NCBI RefSeq assembly: GCF_003010935.1
Contig: NZ_PGGN01000004.1
Span: 1-64,000, forward strand
Direction of reading: 5' to 3'
DNA: 64,000 bases
Source: Phyllobacterium endophyticum
GTDB taxonomy: Bacteria; Pseudomonadota; Alphaproteobacteria; Rhizobiales; Rhizobiaceae
Made by a program: the position numbers and the translations under genes. Below, piece after piece: positions 655-18,862 of the stretch; positions within the stretch are counted from its first letter, which is position 1; every line of letters begins with the position of its first letter. Under the pieces are notes generated by a model. It saw only the letters and a program-made list of their open reading frames with translations, was not told the DNA's origin and did no database searches.

Positions 655-2235
655 ATGGCTGAACCTGCAATCGAATCCAACACAAGTGCATCCTCGCGGG
701 ATCATGGCAGGCGTGGTGGTCGGGCACGGCCGCGCAGCGTGGAGAGCGGCGCGTTCGATCAGCCGGCCACGCGCCAGCTCAGAATCCCTTTCGCCCCAAC
801 GAAGGTCGTTTCCGACGATGAACTGGAATCTATTCACGACGCTTCGCTGAAGGTCCTGCAGGAAATCGGTGTCGACGTGTTGCACAATGGTGCGCGCGAA
901 ATCATGAAAAAGGCAGGCGCCGATGTAGCCCCCGGCACGATGCGCGTTCGATTCGAGAAGGACATGATCCTCGACTATGTCGGGCAGGCGCCGTCCGAGT
1001 TTACGCTGCACGCGCGCAATCCCGCTCACAATGTCCGTTTCGGCGGCAATAATCTCATCTTCGCGCAGATGGGTTCCGCCCCGAATTGTTCGGACACCGA
1101 CAATGGCAGGCGGTCGGGTAATCAGGCTGATTTCCGCAATTTCCTGAAACTGGCGCAGATGCATAATATCATCAATGCGACAGGGGGATATCCTGTAGAA
1201 CCCATCGACATTCATCCCTCGGTGCGTCACCTCGAGTGTATTCGGGATCTGGCCACCCTGACCGACAAGCCGTTTCACATTTATTCGCTGGGCAAGGAGC
1301 GCAACCAGGACGGGATTGAGATCGCGCGCCTCGCTCGCGGCATTAGTCAGGAGCAAATGCAAAGCGAAGCGTCCTGTTATACGATCATAAATACCAATTC
1401 TCCGCTCAAGCTTGACATACCGATGATGGAGGGCATCATTCAGATGTCCGGCAACGGCCAGATCGTCATAGTGACGCCGTTTACTCTCGCAGGCGCCATG
1501 GCGCCGGTGACGATCGCCGGTGCTTTGGTCCAGCAGAACGCCGAAGCGCTAGCTGGAATATCCTTTACCCAGATGGTGAAGAAAGGCGCGCCGGTAGGCT
1601 ATGGCGGATTTACGTCCAATGTCGACATGAAGTCCGGCGCGCCGGCTTTCGGCACCCCCGAATACATGAAGGCGCAAATGATCGGCGGCCAATTGGCCCG
1701 ACGCTACAATATCCCCTATCGCACATCGAACGTTTGCGCTGCCAATACCGTAGATGCTCAAGCGGCCTATGAATCGGTCTTCTCCCTTTGGGGTGCCATT
1801 CAGGGCGGCGGGAATTTTATGCTCCACTCGGCCGGTTGGCTCGAGGGTGGGCTCTGCTGTTCTTATGAGAAGATGGTTCTCGATTTTGATCTCCTGCAAA
1901 TGGTCGCGGAATTCCTGACGCCACTCGACCTTTCCGATGATGCGCTCGGCCTAGATGCGATGCGGGATGTGGGCCCAGGCGGCCATTTCTTCGGCACTGC
2001 TCACACGCAATCGCGCTACAAGAATGCTTTCTACGCGCCCATCATCTCCGATTGGCGCAATTATGAGAGCTGGCAGGAAGCTGGCTCGCCGACGGCTATC
2101 GAGCGGGCAAATCGCGTGTGGAAAGAACGGCTGGCCACCTATGTCAAACCCCCGATCGATCCCGCGATTGAAGAGGAAATCAATGCCTTCGTTGCAGGAC
2201 GCAAGGCAGAGGGCGGCGCTCCAACCGATTTCTGA
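655..2235 (+). CDS. Non-pyrrolysine MttB-superfamily (trimethylamine methyltransferase family) corrinoid methyltransferase, paralogue 1
   Basis: A 526-residue member of the MttB superfamily, TIM-barrel enzymes that move a methyl group from a methylamine to a corrinoid protein. The frame has no internal stop, so it lacks the amber-encoded pyrrolysine of true trimethylamine enzymes and belongs with the non-Pyl homologues, of which a glycine betaine methyltransferase (MtgB) is the known example. Residues about 10-30 are an Arg/Gly-rich disordered stretch (HGRRGGRARPRS); the conserved fold starts near residue 40. The ATG at 655 follows AGGGCATAGGAA, a reasonable ribosome site. It is 58 bases ahead of a dimethylglycine-dehydrogenase-like gene, probably in one operon, and shares clear block similarity (SINTNSPL/INANSPM, GAGWLEGGL-type segments) with the gene at 9495-11081. 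The quaternary amine substrate is inferred from context. Confidence 0.9.
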   Translation: MAEPAIESNTSASSRDHGRRGGRARPRSVESGAFDQPATRQLRIPFAPTKVVSDDELESIHDASLKVLQEIGVDVLHNGAREIMKKAGADVAPGTMRVRFEKDMILDYVGQAPSEFTLHARNPAHNVRFGGNNLIFAQMGSAPNCSDTDNGRRSGNQADFRNFLKLAQMHNIINATGGYPVEPIDIHPSVRHLECIRDLATLTDKPFHIYSLGKERNQDGIEIARLARGISQEQMQSEASCYTIINTNSPLKLDIPMMEGIIQMSGNGQIVIVTPFTLAGAMAPVTIAGALVQQNAEALAGISFTQMVKKGAPVGYGGFTSNVDMKSGAPAFGTPEYMKAQMIGGQLARRYNIPYRTSNVCAANTVDAQAAYESVFSLWGAIQGGGNFMLHSAGWLEGGLCCSYEKMVLDFDLLQMVAEFLTPLDLSDDALGLDAMRDVGPGGHFFGTAHTQSRYKNAFYAPIISDWRNYESWQEAGSPTAIERANRVWKERLATYVKPPIDPAIEEEINAFVAGRKAEGGAPTDF

Positions 2236-2293
2236 TCTTTGACTCAAACTCTCAACACGTTGAATCACATTTTCATAGACGAGGCATAAGATT

Positions 2294-4870
2294 ATGAAAT
2301 CCCACGTTAAAGCAGTTGTCATTGGCGGCGGCGTTGTCGGGTGTTCCGTGCTCTATCATCTTGCGCGTGCCGGGTGGACCGATGTGCTGTTGATCGAACG
2401 GTCGGAACTTACGTCCGGTTCGTCCTGGCATGCTGCTGGCGGCTTTCACACTCTGAATGGCGATCCGAACGTCGCAAAGCTGCAGGCCTACACTGTCAGC
2501 CTCTATAAGGAGATCGAGGAACTTTCCGGTCAGTCCTGCGGACTGCATTTAACCGGCGGCGTGATGATGGCGGACAGTCCGGAACGGATGGACTTCCTGC
2601 GTCTCGCCCATGCCCGTGGCCGCTATCTCGGCATGGACACGGAACTGATTACGCCATCCGAAGCCAAGGCAATGTTCCCGCTGATGGATGAGACGAATTT
2701 CGTAGGCGCCATGTGGGATCCCGTGGAAGGTCATCTCGATCCATCCGGCACCACTCACGCCTATGCCAAAGCCGCACGTAAGCTCGGCGCCGATATATCG
2801 TTGCGAAATCGGGTCGTTGAACTGACGCAAGAAGTCGATGGGACCTGGAATGTCGTTACGGAGCAAGGGACCGTCAAAGCCGAGCACGTGGTCAATTGCG
2901 GCGGTCTCTGGGCGCGGGAGGTCGGACGCATGGTGGGCCTCGAATTGCCCGTCCTGGCGATGGAGCACATGTATCTTCTGACCGAAGACATGCCTGAGGT
3001 CATGGAGTTCAACAAGTCGACGGGCCGCGAACTCATTGGCGTGATGGATTTCAAGGGCGAGATATACACCCGTCAGGAGCGCAACGGCATTCTGCTCGGC
3101 ACCTATGAAAAGGCGGCCAAGCCATGGTCACCGGTCAACACCCCCTGGGACTTCGGCCACGAACTTCTGCCACCGGATATCGATCGAATTGCCCCTTCCC
3201 TTGAAGTCGGGTTCAAGCATTTCCCTGGAATCGAGAAGGCCGGTATCAAGCAAATCATCAATGGCCCCTTCACCTTCGCGCCTGATGGCAATCCGCTCGT
3301 GGGTCCTGTTCCTGGCCTCACCAATTACTGGACAGCCTGTGCGGTAATGGCCGGCTTCAGCCAGGGAGGCGGCGTTGGCCTTGCGCTCTCAAATTGGATG
3401 GTGCACGGCGAACCCGGCTTCGACGTGTGGGGCATGGACGTGGCGCGCTTCGGCGAGTGGGCGACTTTGCGCTATACCAATGCTAAAGTCCGCGAAAATT
3501 ACTCACGGCGCTTCTCCATACGTTTCCCAAACGAGGAGTTACCGGCAGGACGTCCACAGCAGACGACCCCGCTTTACGATACGATGCTTGCCCAAAACGC
3601 TGTCATGGGCGACTCATGGGGTCTTGAAACACCGCTCTGGTTCGCTCCCAAGGGTACTGATCCGCGCGACGTCGTTTCCTATCATCGTTCCAACGATTTC
3701 GAGCATGTCGGGAATGAAGTTCGCGCCACGCGTAACAGCGTCGGAGTCACCGAAATAGCCAACTTTGCCAAATACGAGGTAACGGGCTCGGGTGCTGACG
3801 CCTTCTTGTCCCGCCTGATGACCAACACGATGCCGAAGGTCGGACGACTTGTTCTTACGCCTATGCTCAACCACGAAGGCAAGCTCATTGGCGATTTCAC
3901 GATCGCAAGAGCCGCTGACGAGCGGTTCCTTATCTGGGGATCGTCTGCCGCTCAACGCTATCACATGCGCTGGTTTCGAAAACAGCAGCCGAGGGACGGC
4001 TCCGTGCGCATCCATCGCTTCGACCAGACGCTCGTCGGGCTCTCGATCGCAGGGCCAAAAGCTCGCGCTGTTCTCGGCAAACTCGTCGACGAAGATGTCT
4101 CCAACGCAGCGTTCCGCTTCATGGACTTCCGTGAAATGGCTGTCGGCGGTGCACCTTGCAAAGTGAATCGGATCTCCTACACGGGCGATCTCGGCTATGA
4201 GATATGGATGGAACCTGCCTATCAGCGTCTTGTCTACAAGGCGATCAAGGCAGCCGGCGCCGAATACGGGATCGTTGATTTTGGTATGCGCGCCCTGCTC
4301 TCGATGCGGCTCGAGAAGAATTTCCCCACCTGGTACCGCGAGTTACGACCGATCTACGGGCCCTATGAAGGATCGATGGACCGATTTGTAAAGCTGTCGA
4401 AGAATGATTTCATTGGGCGCGAGGCCGCTGCGCGGGAAAAAGCAGAATTCGACTCGGGCGACACGGCCAAACTTCGCCGGATTTCGTTGATGGTTGACGT
4501 TCCCGAAGGAGAAGGTGCTGCCGACGTGATGGGTGACGAGCCGATCTGGGCCAAGGTCACTAAAGACTACGGCGTCGTGCAGGCGAGCCACGGGGTGGGC
4601 GCACCACGCTTTGACGGAACTGGACAAGTGGTTGCCAATGAAGGTGATATTGGCGCAGTGCAGGGTGAGTGGCGGGTTGTCGGATGGGTAACATCCGGCG
4701 GCTATGCCCACTATGTCGGGAAGTCGATGGCGCAAGGCTACGTACCGGCAGAACTTGCCAAGAGCCAGGAGCGAGGATTGTTCGAGGTGGAAATCCTCGG
4801 TATTCGCCGGCCGGCCCAAATCAACCTTGAGCCGCCATTCGATCCCTCAGGCGAAAAGATGCGCGGGTAG
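2294..4870 (+). CDS. FAD-dependent oxidoreductase with C-terminal GcvT domain (dimethylglycine/sarcosine dehydrogenase-like)
   Basis: 858 residues. The N-terminus has a Rossmann FAD motif (VVIGGGVVGCSVLYHL, residues 8-23) and the segment TSGSSWHAAGG, whose His46 matches the histidine that carries covalent flavin in dimethylglycine dehydrogenases. From about residue 430 the protein is a GcvT/T-protein-like folate-binding domain, which would catch the released C1 unit as methylene-THF. Start ATG 2294 is the first in frame, and the stop lies inside the convergent next gene (24-base overlap). Downstream of an MttB enzyme, it may act on the secondary or tertiary amine left after the corrinoid step. 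A related but distinct protein is encoded at 24198-26714. The exact N-methyl substrate cannot be told from sequence. Confidence 0.88.
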   Translation: MKSHVKAVVIGGGVVGCSVLYHLARAGWTDVLLIERSELTSGSSWHAAGGFHTLNGDPNVAKLQAYTVSLYKEIEELSGQSCGLHLTGGVMMADSPERMDFLRLAHARGRYLGMDTELITPSEAKAMFPLMDETNFVGAMWDPVEGHLDPSGTTHAYAKAARKLGADISLRNRVVELTQEVDGTWNVVTEQGTVKAEHVVNCGGLWAREVGRMVGLELPVLAMEHMYLLTEDMPEVMEFNKSTGRELIGVMDFKGEIYTRQERNGILLGTYEKAAKPWSPVNTPWDFGHELLPPDIDRIAPSLEVGFKHFPGIEKAGIKQIINGPFTFAPDGNPLVGPVPGLTNYWTACAVMAGFSQGGGVGLALSNWMVHGEPGFDVWGMDVARFGEWATLRYTNAKVRENYSRRFSIRFPNEELPAGRPQQTTPLYDTMLAQNAVMGDSWGLETPLWFAPKGTDPRDVVSYHRSNDFEHVGNEVRATRNSVGVTEIANFAKYEVTGSGADAFLSRLMTNTMPKVGRLVLTPMLNHEGKLIGDFTIARAADERFLIWGSSAAQRYHMRWFRKQQPRDGSVRIHRFDQTLVGLSIAGPKARAVLGKLVDEDVSNAAFRFMDFREMAVGGAPCKVNRISYTGDLGYEIWMEPAYQRLVYKAIKAAGAEYGIVDFGMRALLSMRLEKNFPTWYRELRPIYGPYEGSMDRFVKLSKNDFIGREAAAREKAEFDSGDTAKLRRISLMVDVPEGEGAADVMGDEPIWAKVTKDYGVVQASHGVGAPRFDGTGQVVANEGDIGAVQGEWRVVGWVTSGGYAHYVGKSMAQGYVPAELAKSQERGLFEVEILGIRRPAQINLEPPFDPSGEKMRG

Positions 4871-5614: not shown

Positions 5615-5623
5615 GCCTGATAC

Positions 5624-6670: not shown

Positions 6671-6724
6671 CGTCTCACTGTCAGTAGCTGTCAGCAACGA
6701 GATTTTTGTGAGTAAGTGTTGATA

Positions 6725-6744
6725 TTGCGCACCAAACAGCGCAA
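6725..6744. promoter_or_regulatory. Inverted repeat in the divergent desaturase/XRE promoter region
   Basis: TTGCGC at 6725-6730 and GCGCAA at 6739-6744 form a perfect 6-base inverted repeat separated by 8 bases, 33 bases before the XRE start. A direct repeat CTGTCAG (6678-6684 and 6688-6694) lies nearer the desaturase start. Either could be the operator of the XRE regulator; no footprint data are available. Confidence 0.4.
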
Positions 6745-6776
6745 ATGTTGTGGATTGTAAACGACGGGGTGAGACT

Positions 6777-7613: not shown

Positions 7614-7705
7614 TCCTGCGGCACGTCTTGTCGCAAATGATGATTGACCACATATAAAGACTTCCTTATATCGTTATTTAGTTGATACCCATAGGAACGC
7701 GCGTC

Positions 7706-8719
7706 ATGACGATTGCAAACCCACTCGCTGATCTCATTGCTGAAAAGGGCGTTCTGCTCGCCGATGGGGCTACGGGTACAAATCTCTTTGCTGCGGGCCT
7801 GGAAGCTGGAGAAGCGCCAGAGCTTTGGAATGAAGCGCAACCGCAAAAGATTGTTGCACTGCATCAGGGTTTTGTCGATGCGGGGGCGGATATAATTCTC
7901 ACCAATTCCTTTGGCGGCACCCGTCATCGTTTGAAGCTGCATCATGCGCACGACCGTGTGTTCGAACTTAATAAAAAGGCCGCCGAGCTGGCGCGTAGCG
8001 TCGCCGACAAGGCGGGTCGCAAGGTCATCGTCGCTGGATCGGTCGGTCCGACCGGCGAACTCCTGATACCCCTCGGTGCATTGACGGAAGAGGACGCCGT
8101 TGCGGCCTTCACCGAACAATTGGAGGGTTTGAAGGCGGGGGGCGTGGACGTCGCCTGGATTGAAACGATGTCTGCCCCTGGGGAAATACGTGCCGCTGCC
8201 GAAGCTGCTGTAAAAGTGGGCCTGCCTTACGTCTATACGGGTTCGTTTGATACAGCGGGAAAGACCATGATGGGTCTGCCGCCAAAAGAAATCCACGGCG
8301 TTGTGGACGGGCTTTCGCAACCTCCTGTGGCTGTCGGCGCCAATTGCGGCGTCGGTGCGTCGGATATCCTCGCAACACTTCTCGACATGAGTGACGCCGA
8401 TCCTTCTGCGACCATCGTCATCAAGGGCAATTGCGGCATACCCGAATTCAGGGGTGCCGAAATCTTCTATTCCGGAACTCCGGAGCTGATGGCCGACTAC
8501 GCTCACCTGGCGATCAATGGCGGCGCGAAGATCATTGGCGGTTGCTGCGGCACATCGTTCGAGCATCTGGCGGCAATGCGTAAGGCGCTCGACAGTCATA
8601 CGCACGGCGCCCGCCCTTCGGTCGAGACAATCATCGAGACCATCGGACCCATGCGCAACAAGCTTGCAGCGCACGCCGATGATATGCCAAAGCGGGAGCG
8701 GCGCGGACGCCGTGGCTGA
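7706..8719 (+). CDS. Betaine-homocysteine S-methyltransferase-type enzyme (homocysteine S-methyltransferase family)
   Basis: 337 residues from ATG 7706, preceded by AGGAACGCGCGTC; an upstream in-frame TTG at 7682 is less likely. The zinc-dependent homocysteine methyltransferase signature is complete: GANCGVG (Cys214) and IIGGCCGT (Cys280 and Cys281) supply the three zinc ligands, and DGATGTNL near the N-terminus is the usual first barrel strand. The family moves a methyl group from betaine, or another methyl donor, to homocysteine to give methionine. The protein ends in an Arg/Gly tail (PKRERRGRRG) that the fold does not need and that recurs in other enzymes of this region. Its stop codon abuts the stop of the convergent Fe-S gene. 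The methyl donor is inferred. Confidence 0.88.
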   Translation: MTIANPLADLIAEKGVLLADGATGTNLFAAGLEAGEAPELWNEAQPQKIVALHQGFVDAGADIILTNSFGGTRHRLKLHHAHDRVFELNKKAAELARSVADKAGRKVIVAGSVGPTGELLIPLGALTEEDAVAAFTEQLEGLKAGGVDVAWIETMSAPGEIRAAAEAAVKVGLPYVYTGSFDTAGKTMMGLPPKEIHGVVDGLSQPPVAVGANCGVGASDILATLLDMSDADPSATIVIKGNCGIPEFRGAEIFYSGTPELMADYAHLAINGGAKIIGGCCGTSFEHLAAMRKALDSHTHGARPSVETIIETIGPMRNKLAAHADDMPKRERRGRRG

Positions 8720-9409
8720 TCATATGCCGGCGAAAGCCGCCATATGAAAGCGCTGTTGATCCTGCGCATAGGCATGCCCTCGCCCAACCGGACAGGCTAG
8801 CCGGGCCAGGCAACCACCATCCATGCAGGTCGCACCTTGCGGTCCGGCAAGATGATGACGGCAGCTATCCACGGCGAAGCTCGCACTGTTGAAAGCCCCG
8901 GCTGGACATGTGGACAGACAGGGTTTCTCCGCGCAAGTGTCGCAAGGATGGCAAGCCGGAGCATGATGCGTCGGAAATGCCACGGGATGATCAAACAGAA
9001 GTGCGCCGCGATAAGCGTGCCAGAGACCGTATTCGGGATGGATCAGCATCCCCAAGGGAGAGGTCCGTAGACCCTCCGCACGGCCGGCCCATTGCTGGAA
9101 CGGCAAATAGGGTCTGTCGGAGGGAAACACTGACTTCGCACCGAAATCCGCGGCGATCTCGGACAACGCCTGCTTCGACCAGGCATCGAGAGGATCGATC
9201 ATGTTCGGGTGCCATTGCCGCCATTCCATAAAATGCGGCCATATGGACGAGCCGTAATGTCCAACCAGAACCACGCTTTTGGCGATCATCCCTTCGCCCG
9301 GCGGCGGCGCTTGATCCACTTCATCGAAAACAAGTCCGCCGCGGGGGACGAGACCATAGGGCTCCAGCGCGGCGGCAACTTCATCTAGAATCGAAACAGC
9401 GTCACTCAT
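8720..9409 (-). CDS. 4Fe-4S cluster protein (QueG-like ferredoxin region), candidate corrinoid redox partner
   Basis: 229 residues. The C-terminal third has two cysteine groups: CDTCAEKPCLSTCP, a C-x2-C-x4-C-x3-CP 4Fe-4S motif, then CMDGGCLARLACPVG with further cysteines for a second cluster. The arrangement resembles the ferredoxin part of epoxyqueuosine reductase QueG and other corrinoid-linked iron-sulfur proteins, but QueG's cobalamin domain is not evident and the protein is much shorter. It lies between the BHMT-type gene (tail to tail, no spacer) and the second MttB gene, on the latter's strand and 85 bases downstream of it. A role in supplying low-potential electrons to reactivate Co(II) corrinoid is plausible but unproven. 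Confidence 0.7.
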   Translation of the reverse strand: MSDAVSILDEVAAALEPYGLVPRGGLVFDEVDQAPPPGEGMIAKSVVLVGHYGSSIWPHFMEWRQWHPNMIDPLDAWSKQALSEIAADFGAKSVFPSDRPYLPFQQWAGRAEGLRTSPLGMLIHPEYGLWHAYRGALLFDHPVAFPTHHAPACHPCDTCAEKPCLSTCPAGAFNSASFAVDSCRHHLAGPQGATCMDGGCLARLACPVGRGHAYAQDQQRFHMAAFAGI

Positions 9410-9494: not shown

Positions 9495-11081
9495 TCAGGT
9501 GAAAGCGTCGGGCATGGATGCCTTTTTCTTGGCAATGAACTCTTTGAGAGATTCGTCGATGGCGGGATCGAGATGAGGCGCCTCATAAGTCTCCAGCCAC
9601 CGGCGGGCAAGTTCATTGGCTCTTTGATCGGCGCGTTTCTCACCTTCGGCCAGCCATTGCTCATATGAGTTGTTATCTGCAATGCTCGACCGATAAAACG
9701 CCGTCTGGAAGTTGGCCTGGGTGTGGTCGCAACCGAGATAATGGCTGCCGGGCCCAACTTGCCGGATGGCGTCCATGGCCTGACCATTCTCGGACAGGTC
9801 GACACCTTCCGCGATCTTCTGCGCCATGCCAAGCTGGTCTATATCCATCATGAACTTTTCATAGGACGAGACCAACCCGCCCTCGAGCCAGCCGGCCCCG
9901 TGCAGCACGAAATTCGTCCCCGCAAGGAGCGTCGAATTCAACGTATTGGCACTCTCATAAGCAGCTTGTGCGTCGGAGACTTTCGAGGCACAAAGCGAGC
10001 CGCCGGTGCGGAATGGCAGCCCGCAGCGCCGTGCCAGTTGCGCGGCGCCATAAGATACAAGTGACGGCTCCGGCGTGCCGAAGGTTGGCGCACCGGATTG
10101 CATCGAGATCGACGACGCAAAGGTGCCAAATATCACAGGTGCGCCCGGCCGGATCAACTGCGTGAACGACGCCCCGGCCAACACTTCCGCCAAGACCTGC
10201 GTAAGCGTGCCGGCCACGGTTACCGGGCTCATGGCGCCTGCAAGAATGAACGGGGTAACGATACAAGCCTGGTTGTTGCGCGCATACACTTTCAAAGCGC
10301 CCAACATCGTTTCGTCGAAGACCATCGGCGAGTTCGCATTGATCAGGCTCGTCAGCACCGTGTTCTGGTCGAGATAATCCTCGCCGAACACCAGCTTGCA
10401 CATAGCTATTGTATCTTCCGCGCGTTCCGGAGCCGTGACGGATCCCATGAAAGGCTTGTCGGAATATTTGATATGGGCGTACACCATATCGAGATGGCGC
10501 TTGTTGACGGGCACATCTACCGGCTCGCAAACAGTCCCGCCTGAATGGTGGATGGACGGTGCCATATACGCGAGCTTCACGAAATTATTGAAGTCTTCGA
10601 TAGTTGCGTAGCGGCGATTGCCGTCAAGGTCGCGCACAAAGGGCGGCCCGTAGACCGGTGCGAAAACGGTCGCATTGCCGCCGATCTGAACGGAACGCTC
10701 CGGGTTGCGCGCGCGCTGCGTGTAGATTGGGGGGGCCGTCTTCAGCAGGGAGCGCGGCAGGCCTTTGGGGAAATGTACGCGTTCGCCTTTGACGTCGGCG
10801 CCCGCGTCCCTCCAGAGCGCCAGAGCTTCGGCGTCGTCGCGGAACTCGATACCGATCTCTTCCAGAACGGTGTCAGCGTTCGCCTCGATAATCGCCAGCC
10901 CCTCTTCGTCCAACACTTCAAAAGTGCGTATCTTGCGCGTAATATAGGTCAGCGACTTGCCGGGACCGCCGCCCGAACGGGCCGCACGACGGGCAGCTGC
11001 ACCTGCCCCAGCGCCGCGACCGCGACGTCCACTGCTTGTCTCCGCTTCCGCAGGTGCATCGACTGACGTTTCCTCAACCAT
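9495..11081 (-). CDS. Non-pyrrolysine MttB-superfamily corrinoid methyltransferase, paralogue 2
   Basis: 528 residues from ATG 11081, which follows a strong GAGGAGA ribosome site; the frame is open further upstream without one. The whole chain aligns by eye with the 526-residue protein at 655-2235, including the blocks TPFILAGAMSPVTVAGTL, SAPTFGTPE-like and GAGWLEGGLVSSYEK. There is no in-frame amber codon, so no pyrrolysine. Residues about 17-40 are an Arg/Gly/Ala-rich low-complexity stretch (GRRGRGAGAGAAARRAARSG). The gene is divergent from the corrinoid protein gene, with 242 bases between starts. It should methylate the shared corrinoid protein from a quaternary or tertiary amine; two divergent paralogues suggest two substrates. 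Confidence 0.9.
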   Translation of the reverse strand: MVEETSVDAPAEAETSSGRRGRGAGAGAAARRAARSGGGPGKSLTYITRKIRTFEVLDEEGLAIIEANADTVLEEIGIEFRDDAEALALWRDAGADVKGERVHFPKGLPRSLLKTAPPIYTQRARNPERSVQIGGNATVFAPVYGPPFVRDLDGNRRYATIEDFNNFVKLAYMAPSIHHSGGTVCEPVDVPVNKRHLDMVYAHIKYSDKPFMGSVTAPERAEDTIAMCKLVFGEDYLDQNTVLTSLINANSPMVFDETMLGALKVYARNNQACIVTPFILAGAMSPVTVAGTLTQVLAEVLAGASFTQLIRPGAPVIFGTFASSISMQSGAPTFGTPEPSLVSYGAAQLARRCGLPFRTGGSLCASKVSDAQAAYESANTLNSTLLAGTNFVLHGAGWLEGGLVSSYEKFMMDIDQLGMAQKIAEGVDLSENGQAMDAIRQVGPGSHYLGCDHTQANFQTAFYRSSIADNNSYEQWLAEGEKRADQRANELARRWLETYEAPHLDPAIDESLKEFIAKKKASMPDAFT

Positions 11082-11323
11082 TTTCTGTCTCCTCAGCGCT
11101 CGCGAGCGCGGACTTCGTCCTAAGCTAGTCGAATCTAGACGTGACGCCAGCGAGAGCGTTTCCGTGTGCGGCACCCAGTGGCGCATCGGAGACAAACTGC
11201 CGGTCGTTTTCGTCATTTACTAGGTCGCATTTAAGCGATGCGTTTTCAGCAACTTGCCCGATATGTTAAACAAACACCAGTTATGTTAGTGACATTGCAT
11301 AACGCTTGAGAGGAAGCATAAAA
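11082..11323. promoter_or_regulatory. Divergent promoter region between mttB-like paralogue 2 and the corrinoid protein gene
   Basis: 242 noncoding bases once the corrected starts are used. They must hold promoters for both genes. The half nearest the corrinoid gene is AT-rich (TATGTTAAACAAACACC, then GTTATGTTAGTGAC). A short inverted repeat, CTAG-TCGAAT-CTAG, lies near 11125-11138. No cobalamin riboswitch motif was recognised. Confidence 0.45.
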
Positions 11324-12022
11324 ATGGCCGATGATGAAATCATTCTTTCGGAGCTTTCGGACGATGAACTCGTCGAGCAAATGCATGACGACCTCTATGA
11401 CGGTCTCAAGGAAGAAATCGAGGAGGGCACCAACATTCTGCTCGAGCGTGGCTGGGCACCCTACAAGGTCCTCACCGAAGCGTTGGTCGAAGGCATGCGA
11501 ATTGTGGGTGAAGACTTTCGCGACGGTATCCTCTTCGTACCAGAAGTGCTGCTATCGGCAAATGCGATGAAGGCCGGCATGTTCATCCTGCGCCCTTTGC
11601 TTGCTGCAACCGGGGCCCCCAAGCAGGGCAAGCTTGTCATAGGTACCGTCAAAGGTGACATTCATGACATCGGAAAAAATCTCGTCGGCATGATGATGGA
11701 AGGTGCGGGCTTCGATGTCATCGATCTTGGCATCAACAACCCTGTCGAGAAGTATCTTGACGCGATCGAGGAACATAAGCCCGACATTCTCGGGATGTCT
11801 GCCCTGCTTACGACTACCATGCCCTACATGAAAGTCGTCATCGATACGATGAAGGAGAAGGGTATCCGGGACGATTATGTCGTGCTTGTCGGTGGTGCAC
11901 CCTTGAATGAGGAATTCGGCAAGGCGGTCGGTGCCGATGCCTATTGCCGTGATGCGGCAGTTGCGGTCGAAACCGCCAAAGCTTACATGAAGCGGAAACA
12001 CAACCAGCTCTCAGGAGCTTGA
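11324..12022 (+). CDS. Corrinoid (B12-binding) methyl-carrier protein, MttC/MtgC type
   Basis: 232 residues from ATG 11324, preceded by GAGAGGAAG; a TTG six codons earlier is less likely. Residues about 15-90 form the helical cap domain. Residues 104 onward form the Rossmann-like B12 domain with the signature GDIHDIGKNL; His114 in D-x-H-x-x-G is the lower cobalt ligand. The length and architecture match the corrinoid shuttle proteins of methylamine and glycine betaine methyltransferase systems. It is the only such protein in the window, so both MttB paralogues probably charge it, and the MtgA-like enzyme at 15680-16642 would take the methyl group to THF. Confidence 0.93.
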   Translation: MADDEIILSELSDDELVEQMHDDLYDGLKEEIEEGTNILLERGWAPYKVLTEALVEGMRIVGEDFRDGILFVPEVLLSANAMKAGMFILRPLLAATGAPKQGKLVIGTVKGDIHDIGKNLVGMMMEGAGFDVIDLGINNPVEKYLDAIEEHKPDILGMSALLTTTMPYMKVVIDTMKEKGIRDDYVVLVGGAPLNEEFGKAVGADAYCRDAAVAVETAKAYMKRKHNQLSGA

Positions 12023-12098: not shown

Positions 12099-12106
12099 AG
12101 CGTTAA

Positions 12107-12262: not shown

Positions 12263-12333
12263 GGACGGTATCTCCCGTTCTGGTAATATTAAAAACCAAC
12301 GTTCGCACAACGCGATGGAGCCAGATCAGTTCC

Positions 12334-12960
12334 ATGGATGCAAGCCGAAAGTCGACTAAGTCACCGGAGATCGTAAGGGTCATCGCTTGCGGGATGATCG
12401 CACGAGAAATTCTGGCCATACGTGAACAGTGTGGGCTCGATCATATTGATCTTAAATGCCTTCCTGCGATCTACCATCACTATCCCGACAGGATTGCGCC
12501 GTCGGTCGACCGAGCGATCGTCGAAGCCAGGGCGCAGGGCATAACGCGCATCTTTGTAGGCTATGCCGATTGCGGCACGGGAGGAATGCTCGACCGCGTC
12601 TGCGAGAAACATGGAGTTGAACGCATCGCCGGACCCCATTGCTTCTCGTTCTATGCCGGGAACGAAGCGTTCGCCGCACAATGGGAGGACGACATGACCT
12701 CGTTTTTCATGACTGATTTCCTGGCTCGTCATTTCGAAGCTTTCATGGTCAAGCCTCTGGGCCTTGATCGGCACCCGGAACTGCGTGAGATGTACTTTGG
12801 CAACTATACGAAGATGATCTACATGGCACAAACGGATGATCCCGAGTTAAGCGCTAAAGCGGAGAAGGCAGCCGCGTTTCTCGGGCTTGAGTATGAGCGG
12901 CGCCTTACAGGCTATGGCGACCTCGTACCTGCGTTGACCTCCGCTGCTGCTCTCAGCTAG
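12334..12960 (+). CDS. DUF1638 protein
   Basis: 208 residues. It matches the DUF1638 pattern by eye: an N-terminal strand with Cys (VIACGMIARE), a central YADCGTGG motif and GPHCFSFYAG, three conserved-looking cysteines that could bind metal or a cofactor. The ATG at 12334 is chosen because it precedes the conserved core; its ribosome site (GGAG 13 bases upstream) is weak, and a later ATG at 12403 would truncate the first strand. It sits just downstream of the corrinoid protein gene on the same strand. The function of the family is not established; the position suggests a part in corrinoid handling. Confidence 0.78.
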   Translation: MDASRKSTKSPEIVRVIACGMIAREILAIREQCGLDHIDLKCLPAIYHHYPDRIAPSVDRAIVEARAQGITRIFVGYADCGTGGMLDRVCEKHGVERIAGPHCFSFYAGNEAFAAQWEDDMTSFFMTDFLARHFEAFMVKPLGLDRHPELREMYFGNYTKMIYMAQTDDPELSAKAEKAAAFLGLEYERRLTGYGDLVPALTSAAALS

Positions 12961-14359: not shown

Positions 14360-14474
14360 GCTGTCGCAAAAACACTAGTCGGGCACGTCGCATTTGAGTG
14401 GACCCGCGTCGTGAGATAGCAAGCTTGGCCCATGTTTTTCCGGCAAAAGAGGTCCTCGTCGGAGGATGAAATGC

Positions 14475-14777
14475 ATGGCTGATCTCATTGTCGTTTATTG
14501 GCGGGATATTCCTGCTCAAGTGACCGTCAAAAAAGGGCGCCAGGCAGCAAAGCGCGAACTACCGATCCGTTTCACCGAAGCCATCGACATGTGTGCAATG
14601 CGCATCGGTGCCAAAGATTCAGACGCCTATCTGGCGGAATGGCGCCGCGGAACTCCGGTGCCGGTAAGTGATGATCTGGAGACCGAGGCGGACAGCGCCC
14701 TCGCCCGAATTGATTCTGAATATAACCGGGAACGCCTTGTGGCGCTCGTAAAGGCAGGTGGACATGAGCATTCATGA
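14475..14777 (+). CDS. Small 'virulence factor' domain protein translationally linked to metF
   Basis: 100 residues from ATG 14475, with GGAGG nine bases upstream; an ATG three codons earlier would sit directly on that site. The sequence (LIVVYWRDIPAQV, then RELPIRFTEAIDMCAMR) fits the short uncharacterised family named 'virulence factor' (I believe PF13769); the name says little about function. The stop lies 14 bases inside the next gene, metF, which shows tight coupling. Being first in a virulence-factor/metF/mtgA-like operon, it is a good candidate for an accessory subunit or assembly factor of the one-carbon system. Confidence 0.72.
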   Translation: MADLIVVYWRDIPAQVTVKKGRQAAKRELPIRFTEAIDMCAMRIGAKDSDAYLAEWRRGTPVPVSDDLETEADSALARIDSEYNRERLVALVKAGGHEHS

Positions 14778-15669
14778 ATTCAAAGCGAAGTCGCAGCAGG
14801 ATCCAATGACCAAGATCGCAGCATCTATCGAAGTCGCGGCACGCCAGGCAATCGAGTCGCAGGATTTACCGGGTTTGTTCCCTGCTGGCACCCGCGTCTA
14901 TATCACAGATATGGGGACTGATAGCGTCGATACTCTCACGACAGCTGCCAAACGGATTTACGATCTGGGTTACAAACCCGTTCCGCATTTTGCCTCTCGC
15001 CGTCTGTCGACCAGGGTCGCTCTTGAGACACGCATCCGCCGTGCCGCCGAGGAAGCTGGCGTGACAGACGTTCTTGTCATCGGTGGTGGCCTTGAGCGTC
15101 AGGCGGGTGAATTCTCTTCCACGATGGAAGTTCTGGAAACGGGCCTCTTCGACAAGTACGGCATAAATGAAATGGGTGTGGCGGGACACCCGGAAGGCAG
15201 CCCTGAGTTCTCCGAAGCAGTTGCTCTTGAAGCGCTTCGCTTGAAGAAGAATTTCGGCGAACGTACCGGCGCAAAGCTGCGCGTCGTCACCCAGTTTGGT
15301 TTCGATGCAGAGCGCTTCATTCGGTACTCGGAATCGCTGCGCCAACATGGTGTCGACCTGCCAGTACATCTCGGCGTTGCAGGCCCTGCCAAGATTACGA
15401 CCCTGATTAAATACGCGGCCATGTGCGGCGTCGGCAATTCAATCAGCTTTCTGAAGAAGAATGCATTGTCCCTGACCGCCCTTGCCACAAGCCATTCACC
15501 GGAAGGCGTGGTCGGCCCAATCGAGCAGCACGTCTTGGCCACGCCGGCTTCTGCCATCAAGCAGATTCACGTATTCCCGTTCGGAGGGTTGAAGAAATCG
15601 TCCGAATGGCTCGTTGATCGCGGCTCATGGAATGTAAACACGCAATACGCAAACGCAGCGAGCAACTGA
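14764..15669 (+). CDS. Divergent methylenetetrahydrofolate reductase (MetF2-like)
   Basis: 301 residues from ATG 14764, which follows AAGGCAGGTGG; a GTG two codons upstream is possible. It has the TIM-barrel MTHFR pattern: VYITDMGTDSVDTL near the start, PVPHFASRRL (the conserved His/Ala-Ser-Arg strand), DVLVIGGG and an E-x-G-V-A-G-H-P-E-G strand. MTHFR uses FAD to interconvert methylene-THF and methyl-THF. Close packing with the methyl-corrinoid:THF methyltransferase downstream (10 bases) suggests that it runs in the oxidising direction, from methyl-THF to methylene-THF, as MetF2 does in chloromethane utilisation. It is clearly different from a housekeeping MetF in setting, but the direction is inference. 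Confidence 0.85.
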   Translation: MSIHEFKAKSQQDPMTKIAASIEVAARQAIESQDLPGLFPAGTRVYITDMGTDSVDTLTTAAKRIYDLGYKPVPHFASRRLSTRVALETRIRRAAEEAGVTDVLVIGGGLERQAGEFSSTMEVLETGLFDKYGINEMGVAGHPEGSPEFSEAVALEALRLKKNFGERTGAKLRVVTQFGFDAERFIRYSESLRQHGVDLPVHLGVAGPAKITTLIKYAAMCGVGNSISFLKKNALSLTALATSHSPEGVVGPIEQHVLATPASAIKQIHVFPFGGLKKSSEWLVDRGSWNVNTQYANAASN

Positions 15670-15679
15670 GGTAATCTGC

Positions 15680-16642
15680 ATGACCCGCACGATCGTCGCT
15701 TCGGCGACCAGAGAAATCATCATTGGTTTTGATCAGCCTTTCTGCGTGATTGGTGAAAGGATCAATCCAACTGGTCGCAAGAAGCTCGCCGCTGAAATGA
15801 TCGAAGGCAACTTCGACACGGTCATCAGGGATGCGCTGGAGCAGGTTGCCGCGGGCGCGACCATGCTGGATGTCAATGCGGGGGTGACCGCGGTTGATCC
15901 CAATGCGACGGAGCCGGGCCTGCTGGTCCAGACGCTGGAAATCGTTCAGAACCTCGTTGATGTTCCCTTGTCGATCGACAGCTCTGTAAGCGCTGCCATC
16001 GAGGCGGCGTTAAAGGTTGCCAAGGGCCGTCCGCTGGTGAATTCGGTAACCGGCGAGGAGGAAAAACTCGAAGCCATCCTGCCGCTGATCAAGAAGTACA
16101 ACGTTCCTGTCGTCGCCATTTCCAATGATGAGACCGGCATCTCGATGGATCCGGACGTTAGATTCGCCGTCGCCAAGAAGATTGTCGAGCGAGCGGCCGA
16201 TTTCGGTATTCCCGCCCATGATATCGTCGTCGACCCGCTGGTCATGCCGATCGGAGCCCTCGGTGACGCCGGACGACAGGTTTTCGCTTTGCTCCGCCGG
16301 TTGCGCGAAGAACTTAAGGTCAACACGACCTGCGGCCTGTCCAATATCTCTTTCGGCCTTCCGCACCGTCATGGCATCAATGCTGGCTTCATTCCGATGG
16401 TGATTGGTGCCGGCATGACGTCGGCGATCATGAATCCATGCCGACCACAAGAAATGGAGGCAGTTCACGCCGCCAACGTTCTGAACGGCACGGACGCCAA
16501 TTGCACCTACTGGATCAAGAAGTATCGCGATCATCAACCGGCTGCGCCAGGTGTAGCCGCTTCCGTTTCAGTTCCTGCCGATTCTGCCGGTGGCGGGCGC
16601 CGGCGCGGTGGCCGTGAGGCGCGGCGCGGGGTTGCAAGCTAG
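15680..16642 (+). CDS. Methyl-corrinoid:tetrahydrofolate methyltransferase (MtgA/AcsE-like pterin-binding protein)
   Basis: 320 residues. The pterin-binding TIM barrel is visible in GERINPTGRKK, GATMLDVNAG, PLSIDSS, PLVNSVTGE and TTCGLSNISFGLP, the order seen in MtgA, AcsE and the MetH folate domain. The enzyme should take the methyl group from the corrinoid protein and give methyl-THF. After the fold ends (about residue 285) there is a linker and an Arg/Gly tail (GGGRRRGGREARRGVAS) absent from typical members. The gene follows metF by 10 bases with a GAGG ribosome site. Confidence 0.9.
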   Translation: MTRTIVASATREIIIGFDQPFCVIGERINPTGRKKLAAEMIEGNFDTVIRDALEQVAAGATMLDVNAGVTAVDPNATEPGLLVQTLEIVQNLVDVPLSIDSSVSAAIEAALKVAKGRPLVNSVTGEEEKLEAILPLIKKYNVPVVAISNDETGISMDPDVRFAVAKKIVERAADFGIPAHDIVVDPLVMPIGALGDAGRQVFALLRRLREELKVNTTCGLSNISFGLPHRHGINAGFIPMVIGAGMTSAIMNPCRPQEMEAVHAANVLNGTDANCTYWIKKYRDHQPAAPGVAASVSVPADSAGGGRRRGGREARRGVAS

Positions 16643-16711
16643 TTGCGGGGTATTTAATACCTCCTTCAACCCCGATGGGGACGAACAGACGGAGCTATGG
16701 TGCCTTTCTTT

Positions 16712-16732
16712 CTTCTCCCGCTCGGGGAGAAG
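16712..16732. repeat. Palindromic hairpin, rhizobial intergenic repeat type
   Basis: CTTCTCCC at 16712-16719 and GGGAGAAG at 16725-16732 form a perfect 8-base stem with a short GC-rich loop. It lies between the mtgA-like and RACo-like genes. The sequence resembles the CTTCTCCC...GGGAGAAG palindromes scattered through Rhizobiales genomes. It may attenuate read-through or simply be a repeat copy. Confidence 0.55.
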
Positions 16733-16777
16733 TTGGTCCACAGGGCCGAATAAGGGAGCTATTTTGGAGCATAGATT

Positions 16778-18862
16778 TTGAACGCACCCGTCAAAGCACC
16801 GGAGGCAACGGCAAAGGAAGCTCTCGTTCTCTTTATGCCGTCTGGCAAGCGCGGACGTTTTGCAGTCGGCACGCCGATATTGGAAGCTGCCCGCACGCTC
16901 GGCGTATATGTTGAAAGCGTATGCGGTGGACGCGGCATTTGCGGGCGCTGCCAGGTAGAAGTCCAGGAGGGCCGTTTTGCCAAGCACGGCATCACTTCCT
17001 CCAACGATCATATTTCCGAGTTTGGGCCGAAAGAACAACGTTATGCGGAAAAGCGTGATTTAAAGCAAGGCAGGCGCCTCTCCTGCTCTGCCACCATTCT
17101 AGGCGATCTTGTCGTCGACGTTCCGCAGGACGTGCAGATCAATGCCCAAGTCGTTCGCAAAGACGTCGATACCCGCGTCATCGAGCGCAATCCAGCCGTT
17201 CGCATGTGCTATGTCGAGGTGGAAGAACCGGATATGCACAAGCCGCTGGGCGATCTTGACCGGTTGAAGATAGCCCTTGAGAACGAATGGGGCGTGCGTA
17301 ATCTAAACGTGGATGCTTATCTTCTGGCAAACGTGCAGCAGATCCTCCGCAAAGGCGAATGGGGCGTGACCGCCGCTATCCATCACGATGAAGAAACCGA
17401 TCGTCCAACCATGATCGGACTCTGGCCGGGTTTGAAGAACGAAGCCTATGGCATCGCCTGCGACATCGGCTCGACCACGATCGCAATGCATCTCTCGTCG
17501 CTTCTCTCGGTGCGGACAATTGCATCGGCTGGTACATCCAACCCCCAGATACGCTTCGGCGAAGATCTGATGAGCCGCGTTTCATACGTGATGATGAATC
17601 CGGATGGCCGCGAGGGCATGACACTCGCGGTTCGCGAGGCAATAAACGGCCTGATCGACAAGGTTTGCCTTGAGGGAGGCGTCGCGCGCGAAGATATCCT
17701 TGACGCTGTATTCGTCGGCAACCCCATCATGCACCACCTCTTTCTTGGCATAGACCCGACGGAACTTGGCGGCGCACCCTTCGCGCTGGCTGTTTCCGGC
17801 GCTGTGCATCTGAAATCTTCCGACATCGGTTTGCCGATGAACCCGGGCACGCGAGTCTATATGCTACCGTGTATTGCGGGGCATGTTGGCGCGGATGCAG
17901 CCGCAGCCACACTGGCGGAAGGCCCGCACCGCCAGGACGAAATGATGCTTCTCGTCGATGTCGGTACCAATGCGGAGATCGTCCTCGGTAACAGGCAGCG
18001 CACGGTTGCCGCGTCCTCCCCCACCGGTCCTGCGTTCGAGGGTGCAGAAATTTCCGGCGGTCAGCGTGCTGCACCCGGCGCCATCGAGCGTGTCCGTATC
18101 GATCCTGTTACGCTGGAGCCAAAATTTCGCGTAATCGGCACCGAGAAATGGTCAGACGAGCCAGGGTTTGAAGAGGCTGTGCAGGCAAGCGGAATTACCG
18201 GCATTTGCGGCTCGGCCATCATCGAAGTCATTGCGGAAATGTATCTATCCGGAATTATCTCGGAGGATGGCGTCGTCGATGGCACCCTCAGCGTGAAATC
18301 GCCCCGTGTCATGGCGAATGGGCGTACCTTCTCTTACCTTTTGCACGAGGGCTCGCCGACGATAACAATCACCCAAAACGACGTGCGCGCGATCCAGCTT
18401 GCCAAGGCGGCGCTTTATGCCGGCGTGAAGCTCCTCATGGACAAGTTAGGTATCGATCATGTCGATCAAATCCGTTTTGCCGGGGCTTTCGGTTCATTCA
18501 TCGATCCGAAATATGCCATGGTTCTTGGCCTGATCCCGGATTGCGATCTGGACAAGGTGCAAGCCGTCGGCAATGCTGCTGGCACAGGTGCCCGTATGGC
18601 CCTGCTCAATCGCAACTATCGCCGCGAAATCGAGGCTACCGTCACGCGCATCGAGAAAATCGAGACGGCGCTGGAGCCAAAGTTCCAGGAACATTTCGTC
18701 TACGCCATGGCGATGCCCAACAAGATCGACCCGTTTCCAAAATTATCGATGGCAGTCACGTTGCCGCCCCGCAAGAACGTCAGCGAGGACGGTGTCGCAG
18801 GCGATGCGTCTCCGCGCAGGCGCTCCCGTGAAGATCGGGCCGCAAGGCGTTCACGCGAATAG
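16778..18862 (+). CDS. RACo-like ASKHA-family reductive activator of corrinoid proteins with N-terminal 2Fe-2S domain
   Basis: 694 residues, beginning with TTG at 16778, which has GGAG nine bases upstream; no ATG fits. Residues about 15-110 are a plant-type 2Fe-2S ferredoxin domain with CGGRGICGRCQ and a later Cys (LSCSATI). A linker and middle domain follow, then from about residue 225 an actin-like ATPase (DUF4445) with YGIACDIGSTTIAMHL and LLVDVGTNAEIVLG phosphate loops. This is the RACo/RamA-like class that uses ATP to push an electron into inactive Co(II) corrinoid proteins. The C-terminus is Arg-rich (SPRRRSREDRAARRSRE). It lies directly after the methyltransferase genes and would be the repair enzyme for the corrinoid protein at 11324-12022. 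Confidence 0.9.
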   Translation: MNAPVKAPEATAKEALVLFMPSGKRGRFAVGTPILEAARTLGVYVESVCGGRGICGRCQVEVQEGRFAKHGITSSNDHISEFGPKEQRYAEKRDLKQGRRLSCSATILGDLVVDVPQDVQINAQVVRKDVDTRVIERNPAVRMCYVEVEEPDMHKPLGDLDRLKIALENEWGVRNLNVDAYLLANVQQILRKGEWGVTAAIHHDEETDRPTMIGLWPGLKNEAYGIACDIGSTTIAMHLSSLLSVRTIASAGTSNPQIRFGEDLMSRVSYVMMNPDGREGMTLAVREAINGLIDKVCLEGGVAREDILDAVFVGNPIMHHLFLGIDPTELGGAPFALAVSGAVHLKSSDIGLPMNPGTRVYMLPCIAGHVGADAAAATLAEGPHRQDEMMLLVDVGTNAEIVLGNRQRTVAASSPTGPAFEGAEISGGQRAAPGAIERVRIDPVTLEPKFRVIGTEKWSDEPGFEEAVQASGITGICGSAIIEVIAEMYLSGIISEDGVVDGTLSVKSPRVMANGRTFSYLLHEGSPTITITQNDVRAIQLAKAALYAGVKLLMDKLGIDHVDQIRFAGAFGSFIDPKYAMVLGLIPDCDLDKVQAVGNAAGTGARMALLNRNYRREIEATVTRIEKIETALEPKFQEHFVYAMAMPNKIDPFPKLSMAVTLPPRKNVSEDGVAGDASPRRRSREDRAARRSRE

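What the first reader, a model, noticed from the sequence alone, without database searches (positions are those of the whole stretch)
655..18862. A near-complete corrinoid-dependent quaternary-amine demethylation system in what looks like an aerobic alphaproteobacterium
The sequence shows, in one region, two non-pyrrolysine MttB enzymes, a MttC-type corrinoid protein, an MtgA-like methyl-corrinoid:THF methyltransferase, a RACo-like ATP-dependent activator with its own 2Fe-2S domain, a divergent MetF, a BHMT-type enzyme and a 4Fe-4S protein, with an amine-uptake ATPase at the left edge. From known families, corrinoid methylamine systems are best studied in anaerobes, and betaine demethylation in aerobes is usually credited to BHMT or Rieske (GbcAB) enzymes; no Rieske enzyme is seen here. 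The inference is an aerobic path: betaine to corrinoid to methyl-THF, MetF running oxidatively to methylene-THF, with DMGDH and sarcosine oxidase completing demethylation.
Basis: partly seen in the sequence, partly recalled or inferred. Interest (0 to 1): 0.8.

Follow-up and report, generated by a model that had tools for sequence, protein, structure and literature searches.

The report
B12-dependent betaine demethylation gene cluster
A Phyllobacterium-like bacterium carries a vitamin-B12 enzyme set that very probably strips methyl groups from betaine; this set is already known from related aerobic bacteria, but it comes with two uncharacterised companion proteins, one of which looks like a new kind of B12-handling protein.

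Summary
The window (a Phyllobacterium-like genome) carries two non-pyrrolysine MttB-family proteins, a corrinoid protein, a methyl-corrinoid:THF methyltransferase, a RACo-type activator, a divergent MetF, a homocysteine methyltransferase and an Fe-S protein. The system is not new: it matches the aerobic MtgBCDE betaine demethylase/methionine synthase published in 2025 (PMC12478193), which reports the S. meliloti cluster too. The 'BHMT-type' enzyme matches methionine-synthase modules better than BHMT, so I read it as MtgE. Two GbcA-like Rieske oxygenases lie elsewhere in the genome. Two companions look undescribed. (1) PF13769, annotated 'virulence factor': of 44 genomes that have it among 230 alphaproteobacteria, 44 have a RACo match (one sub-threshold) and 43 MttB; in 56 of 58 named loci it directly precedes the methyl-THF reductase gene(s). 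(2) The Fe-S protein has a predicted CblC/QueG-type cobalamin-binding fold plus eight invariant cysteines; support is moderate. It would be a new class III B12/[4Fe-4S] family, beside MttB in most rhizobial loci but not obligate. Substrates, methyl direction and companion roles are inferred.

The parts
3..530 (+). C-terminal part of a betaine/proline-type ABC transporter ATPase with CBS domain (cut by contig edge; ATPase type recognised by eye)
   Evidence: PF00571; a second copy with identical protein sequence ends contig C6 (512 of 530 bases identical)
655..2235 (+). MttB-family methyltransferase a (non-Pyl), candidate MtgB
   Evidence: PF06253 662 bits; no in-frame stop; TIGR02369 303 bits, below cut-off 525; 58 bases upstream of the DMGDH-like gene
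2294..4870 (+). Dimethylglycine/sarcosine dehydrogenase-like (DAO + GCV_T)
7682..8719 (+).
   Evidence: PF02574, NF005718 556 bits; nearest PDB sequences are methionine synthases; GNCG and GGCCG cysteines present
8720..9409 (-).
   Evidence: 8 invariant Cys; Foldseek; at E <= 1, PF16690 in 17 of 23 and TIGR00276 in 14 of 23 homologues
9495..11216 (-). MttB-family methyltransferase b (non-Pyl), candidate MtgB; start codon uncertain (family match begins near 11003)
   Evidence: PF06253 782 bits; 967.6 bits to PDB 4yyc
11324..12022 (+). MtgC corrinoid protein; the only match of its kind in the genome to the MetH profile besides MetH itself
   Evidence: PF02310/PF02607; NF047996 MtgC 216 bits, below cut-off 370; B12-motif residues G111-D-I-H-D-I-G-K118 invariant in 16 homologues
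12307..12960 (+). DUF1638 protein (core 12457-12924; start uncertain), putative corrinoid reactivation factor
   Evidence: PF07796; P. inhibens homologue needed for methionine synthesis (PMC5764234, passages)
14475..14777 (+). PF13769 ('virulence factor') small protein, conserved component of the system
   Evidence: co-occurrence; neighbours
14758..15669 (+). MetF2, divergent methylene-THF reductase (7xg9-like); overlaps the PF13769 gene
15680..16642 (+). MtgD, pterin-binding methyl-corrinoid:THF methyltransferase
   Evidence: PF00809, NF005719 396 bits
16778..18862 (+). RACo/RamA-like ATP-dependent corrinoid activator with 2Fe-2S domain
   Evidence: PF14574 302 bits, PF17651, PF17650, PF00111
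22135..23133 (+). GlxA-type (DJ-1/PfpI + AraC) regulator, candidate regulator of the cluster
   Evidence: homologue near the operon in several loci
24198..26816 (-). Second dimethylglycine dehydrogenase-like protein
35652..38639 (+). Sarcosine oxidase alpha-type subunit, followed by SoxG at 38611-39219
   Evidence: TIGR01372 1400 bits, over cut-off

Best explanation
The region encodes an aerobic, cobalamin-dependent quaternary-amine demethylase of the published MtgBCD(E) type. MttB-a and/or MttB-b (MtgB) move a methyl group from glycine betaine or a related betaine to cob(I)alamin on MtgC. MtgD passes it to THF. MetF2 oxidises methyl-THF to methylene-THF for C1 oxidation or serine synthesis. 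DMGDH-like and sarcosine oxidase enzymes remove the remaining methyls. MtgE can instead take the methyl from MtgC to make methionine. RACo plus DUF1638 re-reduce cob(II)alamin when the corrinoid is oxidised, which matters most in air. The CblC/QueG-like Fe-S protein probably binds cobalamin and delivers or reduces it for MtgC. PF13769 probably acts with the folate-side enzymes or with RACo. Shown here: gene content, family membership, gene order, co-occurrence. Shown by others for homologues: need for MtgC and MtgD for betaine growth and methionine. Inferred: substrate of each MttB here, direction of MetF2, and roles of the Fe-S and PF13769 proteins.
For: Family matches for every step. One MtgC, MtgD and MtgE each found in the genome, all in this cluster, beside a separate full MetH. 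The same gene set in the same order, with other genes between, in an annotated S. meliloti record, and the counts over 80 named loci. In Azoarcus pAZKH the run corrinoid-DUF1638-PF13769-MTHFR_C-MTHFR-'dihydropteroate synthase' (MtgD slot)-ASKHA is flanked by proV, a betaine/proline permease, a GlxA regulator, purU and a betaine-binding protein, tying it to betaine uptake and THF-linked C1 oxidation. Published proteomics and mutants in R. pomeroyi (PMC12478193) and fitness data in P. inhibens (PMC5764234, passages). MtgE resembles methionine-synthase modules more than BHMT.
Against: Substrate not tested; PMC12478193 itself notes MtgB-like homologues in other bacteria that prefer other quaternary amines. 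No MttB is annotated in the 18 kb Azoarcus stretch, so the operon may serve other methyl donors. MtgC scores below the NCBI MtgC cut-offs (216 of 370, 177 of 310). Two GbcA-like Rieske oxygenases in the genome could carry betaine demethylation. P. inhibens Bmt (MtgE homologue) was reported to use betaine directly in vitro (PMC12366255, passages), against a pure MtgE role. No cobalamin riboswitch was found in the window.
Confidence: 0.8

Rival explanations
1. The corrinoid proteins are mainly a split, B12-dependent methionine synthase (MtgC-MtgD-MtgE with RACo and DUF1638), as in Phaeobacter; the MttB proteins are minor or serve rare substrates.
For: P. inhibens uses homologues of these proteins for methionine (PMC5764234, passages). 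MtgE is in the cluster and methionine-synthase-like. No MetE match.
Against: Full-length MetH is present in this genome, so a second synthase is not needed. MttB is present in 40 of the 41 surveyed genomes that have both DUF1638 and RACo. A dedicated MTHFR, DMGDH-like and sarcosine oxidase genes lie nearby.
Confidence: 0.12
2. Betaine is demethylated mainly by the GbcA/GbcB-like Rieske pairs elsewhere in the genome; the MttB system handles another quaternary amine such as proline betaine, carnitine or gamma-butyrobetaine.
For: Two GbcA-like (519 and 417 bits) and two GbcB-like (391 and 312 bits) proteins. One pair, on contig C6, lies about 1.6 kb from an ABC ATPase whose C-terminal part is identical in protein sequence to the one at the window's left edge.
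Against: Both pairs score below the curated GbcA/GbcB cut-offs of 670 and 500. Close solved relatives of the C10 oxygenase include 4qup, labelled monoxygenase/demethylase (I recall it as stachydrine demethylase), so these pairs may be the ones with another substrate.
Confidence: 0.25
3. The Fe-S protein is an ordinary ferredoxin-type electron carrier with a chance resemblance to CblC/QueG.
For: Fold E-values are modest (best 1.7e-4; TM-scores mostly 0.4-0.5); block-mean model confidence is 47-64 around the clusters. The profile match to PDB MMACHC is weak (E 0.055). The window's own protein reaches MMACHC only at E 0.059 and QueG at 0.006. The ferredoxin-type protein NapG matches 13 of 23 members about as well as QueG does (best 4.8e-5). 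The comparison with E. coli QueG covers only the ferredoxin part. S. meliloti annotates it 'ferredoxin'.
Against: All 50 listed Foldseek rows (of 177 with E <= 10) are CblC, QueG or reductive dehalogenases, all B12 proteins. At E <= 1, MMACHC matches 17 of 23 members (best 1.3e-5) and QueG 14 of 23 (best 6.5e-5); in the window's own protein these matches fall at or near the junction of the two regions.
Confidence: 0.25

Closest known systems
Aerobic MtgBCDE glycine betaine demethylase / split methionine synthase (Ruegeria pomeroyi; PMC12478193)
   Same: MtgB, MtgC, MtgD, MtgE, RamA-like activator, DUF1638, metF2; the paper says the S. meliloti genes are co-located, as here
   Different: This genome keeps full MetH and has two GbcA-like Rieske pairs; genes are co-located rather than scattered as in R. 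pomeroyi. The words virulence, ferredoxin and 4Fe-4S do not occur in that paper's main text; its figures and supplements were not seen
Split methionine synthase of Phaeobacter inhibens with RamA-like and DUF1638 proteins (PMC5764234, passages)
   Same: Three methionine-synthase pieces and two reactivation proteins
   Different: There no methionine synthase gene of the usual kind was identified and, in the passages seen, no betaine role was tested
MtgB/MtgC/MtgA of the anaerobe Desulfitobacterium hafniense (described in PMC12478193)
   Same: Non-Pyl MttB homologue, corrinoid protein, methyl-THF methyltransferase logic; MttB-b gives 414 bits to PDB 9yce, 'Glycine betaine methyltransferase' (that 9yce is the D. 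hafniense enzyme is recalled)
   Different: Anaerobe; the corrinoid protein here scores below the MtgC cut-offs
Class III B12/[4Fe-4S] enzymes (QueG, reductive dehalogenases) and CblC/MMACHC
   Same: For the Fe-S protein: predicted nitroreductase-type cobalamin-binding module followed by a two-cluster ferredoxin region
   Different: Only 229 aa, no QueG HEAT-repeat domain, different cysteine spacing, beside MttB; CblC lacks the ferredoxin part (PMC4646009, passages)
PduS corrin reductase (PMC2982820; start of abstract seen in a listing only)
   Same: Precedent for a dedicated corrin reductase serving a B12 enzyme
   Different: A different system (diol dehydratase in a microcompartment); not compared by sequence here

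Membership tests
Aerobic MtgBCDE system | pfam06253 methyltransferase without pyrrolysine (MtgB) | tested here: met
   Two, 662 and 782 bits, no in-frame stops
Aerobic MtgBCDE system | Stand-alone corrinoid protein with B12-binding motif (MtgC) | tested here: met
   PF02607+PF02310; GDIHDIGK invariant in 16
Aerobic MtgBCDE system | Pterin-binding MtgD | tested here: met
   NF005719 396 bits, cut-off 259
Aerobic MtgBCDE system | MtgE of methionine-synthase type | tested here: met
   Seven methionine-synthase sequences 135-83 bits; four BHMT sequences 48.6-42
Aerobic MtgBCDE system | RamA-like and DUF1638 reactivation proteins | tested here: met
Aerobic MtgBCDE system | mtgC/mtgD mutants lose betaine growth and methionine prototrophy | not testable with these tools
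   Shown by others for R. pomeroyi
Aerobic MtgBCDE system | Absence of metH (typical, about 70% of marine genomes in the paper, not defining) | tested here: not met
   Full MetH at C6:417143-420703; the paper notes genomes with both, typically in Hyphomicrobiales and a few other groups
Pyrrolysine MttB (trimethylamine) | In-frame UAG read as pyrrolysine | tested here: not met
   No in-frame stop in either; TIGR02369 303/286 bits below 525
BHMT (betaine-homocysteine methyltransferase) | Closest to BHMT by sequence | tested here: not met
   Methionine synthases closer, although NCBIfam names the family betaine--homocysteine S-methyltransferase
BHMT (betaine-homocysteine methyltransferase) | Betaine-binding residues of human BHMT | not tested
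   Residue alignment to BHMT was not printed; PMC12478193 reports them lacking in S. meliloti-type homologues
GbcAB Rieske route | GbcA and GbcB over curated cut-offs | tested here: not met
   519/417 against 670 and 391/312 against 500; related function still possible
Class III B12/[4Fe-4S] proteins (for the Fe-S protein) | Nitroreductase/CblC-type cobalamin-binding fold | tested here: inconclusive
   Predicted only. For: all 50 listed Foldseek rows, PF16690 and TIGR00276 hits. Weak: TM about 0.5 or less, PDB profile E 0.055, QueG comparison covers the ferredoxin part only
Class III B12/[4Fe-4S] proteins (for the Fe-S protein) | Eight cysteines for two [4Fe-4S] clusters | tested here: met
   C156,159,164,168,183,195,200,206 invariant in 23 of 23; spacing differs from QueG
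Class III B12/[4Fe-4S] proteins (for the Fe-S protein) | Binds cobalamin base-off | not testable with these tools
   Needs purified protein
QueG | C-terminal HEAT-repeat domain (PMC4646009) | tested here: not met
   Protein ends after the ferredoxin region (229 aa); TIGR00276 15.6 bits against 200

The most novel reading that the evidence does not exclude
The Fe-S protein at 8720-9409 is the founding member of a new class III cobalamin/[4Fe-4S] family: a CblC/QueG-type B12-binding module with its own two-cluster wire that reduces or loads cobalamin for MtgC. PF13769 would be a near-obligate, so far undescribed subunit of the aerobic MtgBCD methyl-transfer and methyl-THF oxidation machinery. 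Together they would explain how an oxygen-sensitive corrinoid pathway is kept alive in air.
Probability: 0.35. Interest if true: 0.75.

Novelty: new member of a known kind. Interest (0 to 1): 0.5.

Why it matters
The core result is a further, well-preserved instance of a recently published route by which aerobic bacteria use betaine with a kind of B12 enzyme usually credited to anaerobes. The added value is two concrete leads: a small protein family labelled 'virulence factor' that tracks this system across the surveyed Alphaproteobacteria, and a CblC/QueG-like Fe-S protein that could be a B12 reductant or loader. The authors of the QueG structure wrote that further class III families may exist and that finding them may await study of genes with C-terminal ferredoxin-like modules (PMC4646009, passages); this is such a candidate, with a metabolic context that makes it testable.

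Tried and rejected
Cobalamin riboswitch or other RNA control near the cluster: none at gathering score in the window except a TPP riboswitch at 57564-57680. A sub-threshold PYLIS_3 match inside MttB-b (24.7 bits against 38, E 0.23) I treat as homology to mttB DNA or chance, since the frame has no stop.

PF13769 as a partner of MetF2 only: rejected, because in 49 of 58 named loci the next gene is MetV (with MetF after it), in 2 of 58 it is MtgD, and in two class-survey loci it is RACo. PF13769 as exclusive to this system: not so across all bacteria; the family also rings in the Bacillus subtilis control, where the MTTB and RACo profiles do not. Fold match for PF13769: none with E <= 0.001 (model pLDDT 76). 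DUF1638 has no solved relative by sequence (best E 0.076).

Fe-S protein as an obligate part: rejected. 13 of 49 genomes with it lack MttB, and 14 of 50 with MttB lack it. Of 29 loci around it in other alphaproteobacteria (about 2.3-3.7 kb each), tblastn with window proteins found other system genes only in L032 (MtgD, RACo), and an AraC in L009; the flanks share no family beyond pairs. By coordinates, 6 of the 48 other genomes have it within 2.3 kb of a system gene: DUF1638 in G117, G125 and G222, RACo in G088, MttB in G037 and G165 (the MttB list was capped). It was not detected in any of the loci L037-L080, fetched mostly around PF13769. So linkage outside rhizobia is real but uncommon.

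MtgC/D/E counts in the class survey could not be used, because one search scored at most two candidates per genome.

Full report
Check of the observation. The two MTTB-family proteins are the only two found in the genome (8 candidates scored), have no in-frame stop, and score below the pyrrolysine-MttB cut-off. With the MetH profile, MtgC, MtgD and MtgE each give one match, all here, besides a full-length MetH on contig C6 (7 candidates scored). No MetE match was found. Two further genes belong to the set and were missed: DUF1638 and a PF13769 protein whose frame overlaps metF2.

Host. The closest named MtgC relatives are Phyllobacterium species (99% in P. bourgognense, 98% in Ca. P. onerii and P. 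trifolii), so the organism is a Phyllobacterium or near relative. Lineage rests on this only.

Known system. PMC12478193 (parts 1-4 of 6 read; main text searched for terms; figures and supplements not seen) reports that R. pomeroyi uses MtgB, MtgC and MtgD for betaine demethylation and MtgC, MtgD and MtgE for methionine, with RamA, DUF1638 and MetF2 more abundant on betaine and related compounds. It states that in S. meliloti MtgBCDE and both reactivation modules are co-located. [quoted passage not shown] inhibens and two likely reactivation proteins. The window is a member of this kind. An annotated S. meliloti record (labelled pSymB; at 3.7 Mb it may be the chromosome) shows, in this order and with other genes between: bmt, 'ferredoxin', MttB, cobalamin-binding protein, DUF1638, 'virulence factor', MTHFR C-terminal protein, MTHFR, methyl-THF:cobalamin methyltransferase, ASKHA protein.

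The BHMT-type enzyme. Its best solved relatives are methionine synthases (135 to 83 bits, seven sequences), ahead of a homocysteine S-methyltransferase (52) and four BHMT sequences (48.6 to 42). It is therefore read as MtgE. One paper reports direct betaine use in vitro by the P. inhibens homologue (PMC12366255, passages), so a direct activity is not excluded.

Other routes in the genome. GbcB-like proteins (391 and 312 bits, cut-off 500) and GbcA-like Rieske proteins (519 and 417 bits, cut-off 670) occur on contigs C10 and C6. The C6 pair lies about 1.6 kb from an ATPase gene whose C-terminal 175 residues are identical to those at the window's left edge; the DNA is identical for the first 127 bases and 512 of 530 in all, then diverges. 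This looks like a duplicated transporter at which the assembly broke. Sarcosine oxidase alpha subunits over the cut-off occur twice, one in the window.

PF13769. In 230 alphaproteobacterial genomes (tabulated) PF13769 is in 44. Of these, 44 have a RACo match (G228's is below the cut-off), 43 have MttB (the exception is G228, 80% complete) and 38 have DUF1638, against about 10, 10 and 8 expected by chance. With one genome per listed family (n = 101) it occurs in 28 of 32 MttB genomes and 0 of 69 others (listing bias noted under Tried and rejected). Of 44 fetched PF13769 places in the class survey (own genome left out), 42 lie within 3 kb of another system gene; the two exceptions are on contigs of 4.8 and 9.4 kb. 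The figures are 28 of 28 in a 299-genome phylum survey (own genome and four class-survey genomes among them) and 58 of 58 in the named MtgC loci (the named loci were chosen by MtgC, so the last figure is partly by construction). In the named loci the next gene is MetV in 49, MetF2 in 7 and MtgD in 2 of 58. So one slot holds either a two-gene MetV-MetF or a single MetF2 ('MetV' is my recalled name for the MTHFR C-terminal protein). In Azoarcus, a betaproteobacterium, PF13769 sits in a run of overlapping genes near a betaine transporter, a GlxA regulator and purU. PF13769 and Virulence_fact occurred in no paper of the held library (3 papers held any of four terms, these two in none; an earlier search with PF13769 among its terms listed none either). 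Against exclusivity, the family also rings in the B. subtilis control. Its fold could not be matched.

The Fe-S protein. It has no Pfam match at E <= 0.001. Alignment of 23 homologues shows eight invariant cysteines and an invariant P-L-G-x-L-x-H, G-x-W-x3-R stretch. The AlphaFold model (pLDDT 77, pTM 0.76) has block means of 88-97 over residues 11-110 except 65 for 31-40, and 47-64 over 151-210 around the cysteines. Foldseek listed 50 of 177 matches: the first 28 are MMACHC/CblC or QueG (best E 1.7e-4, probability 1.00) and the other 22 are reductive dehalogenases; 8 reach E <= 0.001. Member by member at E <= 1, 17 of 23 match PF16690 MMACHC (best 1.3e-5) and 14 of 23 match QueG TIGR00276 (best 6.5e-5); the window's own protein gives 0.059 and 0.006, far below cut-offs, and NapG matches 13 of 23. 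Against this reading: TM-scores are about 0.5 or less, the profile reaches PDB MMACHC only at E 0.055, and comparison with E. coli QueG aligns only the ferredoxin region (probability 56). QueG's own architecture is cobalamin module, two-cluster ferredoxin, HEAT domain; CblC lacks the ferredoxin (PMC4646009, passages). This protein would have the first two parts only. It is found in 61 of the 80 named loci, in 58 of them within 1 kb downstream of MttB-b. In the class survey it is in 49 of 230, 36 with MttB (10.7 expected), 13 without, and absent from 14 of 50 MttB genomes; one per listed family, it is in 23 of 32 MttB genomes and 9 of 69 others. In 6 of the 48 other genomes it lies within 2.3 kb of a DUF1638, RACo or MttB gene. 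So it is a frequent but not obligate companion. Searches for a CblC-like or QueG-like corrinoid reductase tied to MttB in the library (listings only) showed no description of it.

Mechanism. The best-supported model is given under Best explanation. Gene content and association are shown; methyl flow is supported by others' work in R. pomeroyi; the substrate of each MttB here, MetF2 direction, and the roles of PF13769 and the Fe-S protein are inferred. Verdict: a well-formed member of a newly known system, with two companion genes worth following.

Noticed in passing
L194 7933-10265 (-); L195 6046-8368 (+): Two GbcA/GbcB-like Rieske pairs elsewhere in the same genome, below curated cut-offs.
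   Followed up: partly
window 1-530 and end of contig C6 (L195): An ABC ATPase C-terminal part with identical protein sequence stands both at the window's left edge and at the end of contig C6 (512 of 530 bases identical), so the transporter is probably duplicated, one copy by MtgBCDE and one by a Rieske pair.
   Followed up: partly
named loci L109-L188, slot after PF13769: 49 of 58 have MetV-MetF where Phyllobacterium and a few others (7 of 58) have a single 7xg9-like MetF2; gene replacement at one slot.
   Followed up: partly
L199 1-15000: Azoarcus plasmid operon adds ETF subunits, proV/permease, GlxA regulator and purU, with no MttB annotated in the 18 kb shown.
   Followed up: no
L063 8571-12339; L076 8941-10567: Second MtgC copy in one genome (L063) and a repeated DUF1638-PF13769 block in another (L076).
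   Followed up: no
class survey genomes G081, G125, G187, G224, G229: RACo relatives with lower scores and mostly shorter frames in genomes without an MttB match, possibly activators for other corrinoid proteins.
   Followed up: no
class survey genomes G117, G125, G222: The Fe-S protein lies 1.1-2.1 kb from DUF1638, a second kind of linkage to the system.
   Followed up: partly
L198: The S. meliloti record labelled pSymB is 3.7 Mb long, so its replicon label may be wrong.
   Followed up: no
window 57564-57680 (-): TPP riboswitch, 75 bits.
   Followed up: no
window 4847-7613: PhnD-like protein, fatty-acid desaturase and XRE gene found beside the cluster in several Mesorhizobium, Phyllobacterium and related loci.
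   Followed up: no
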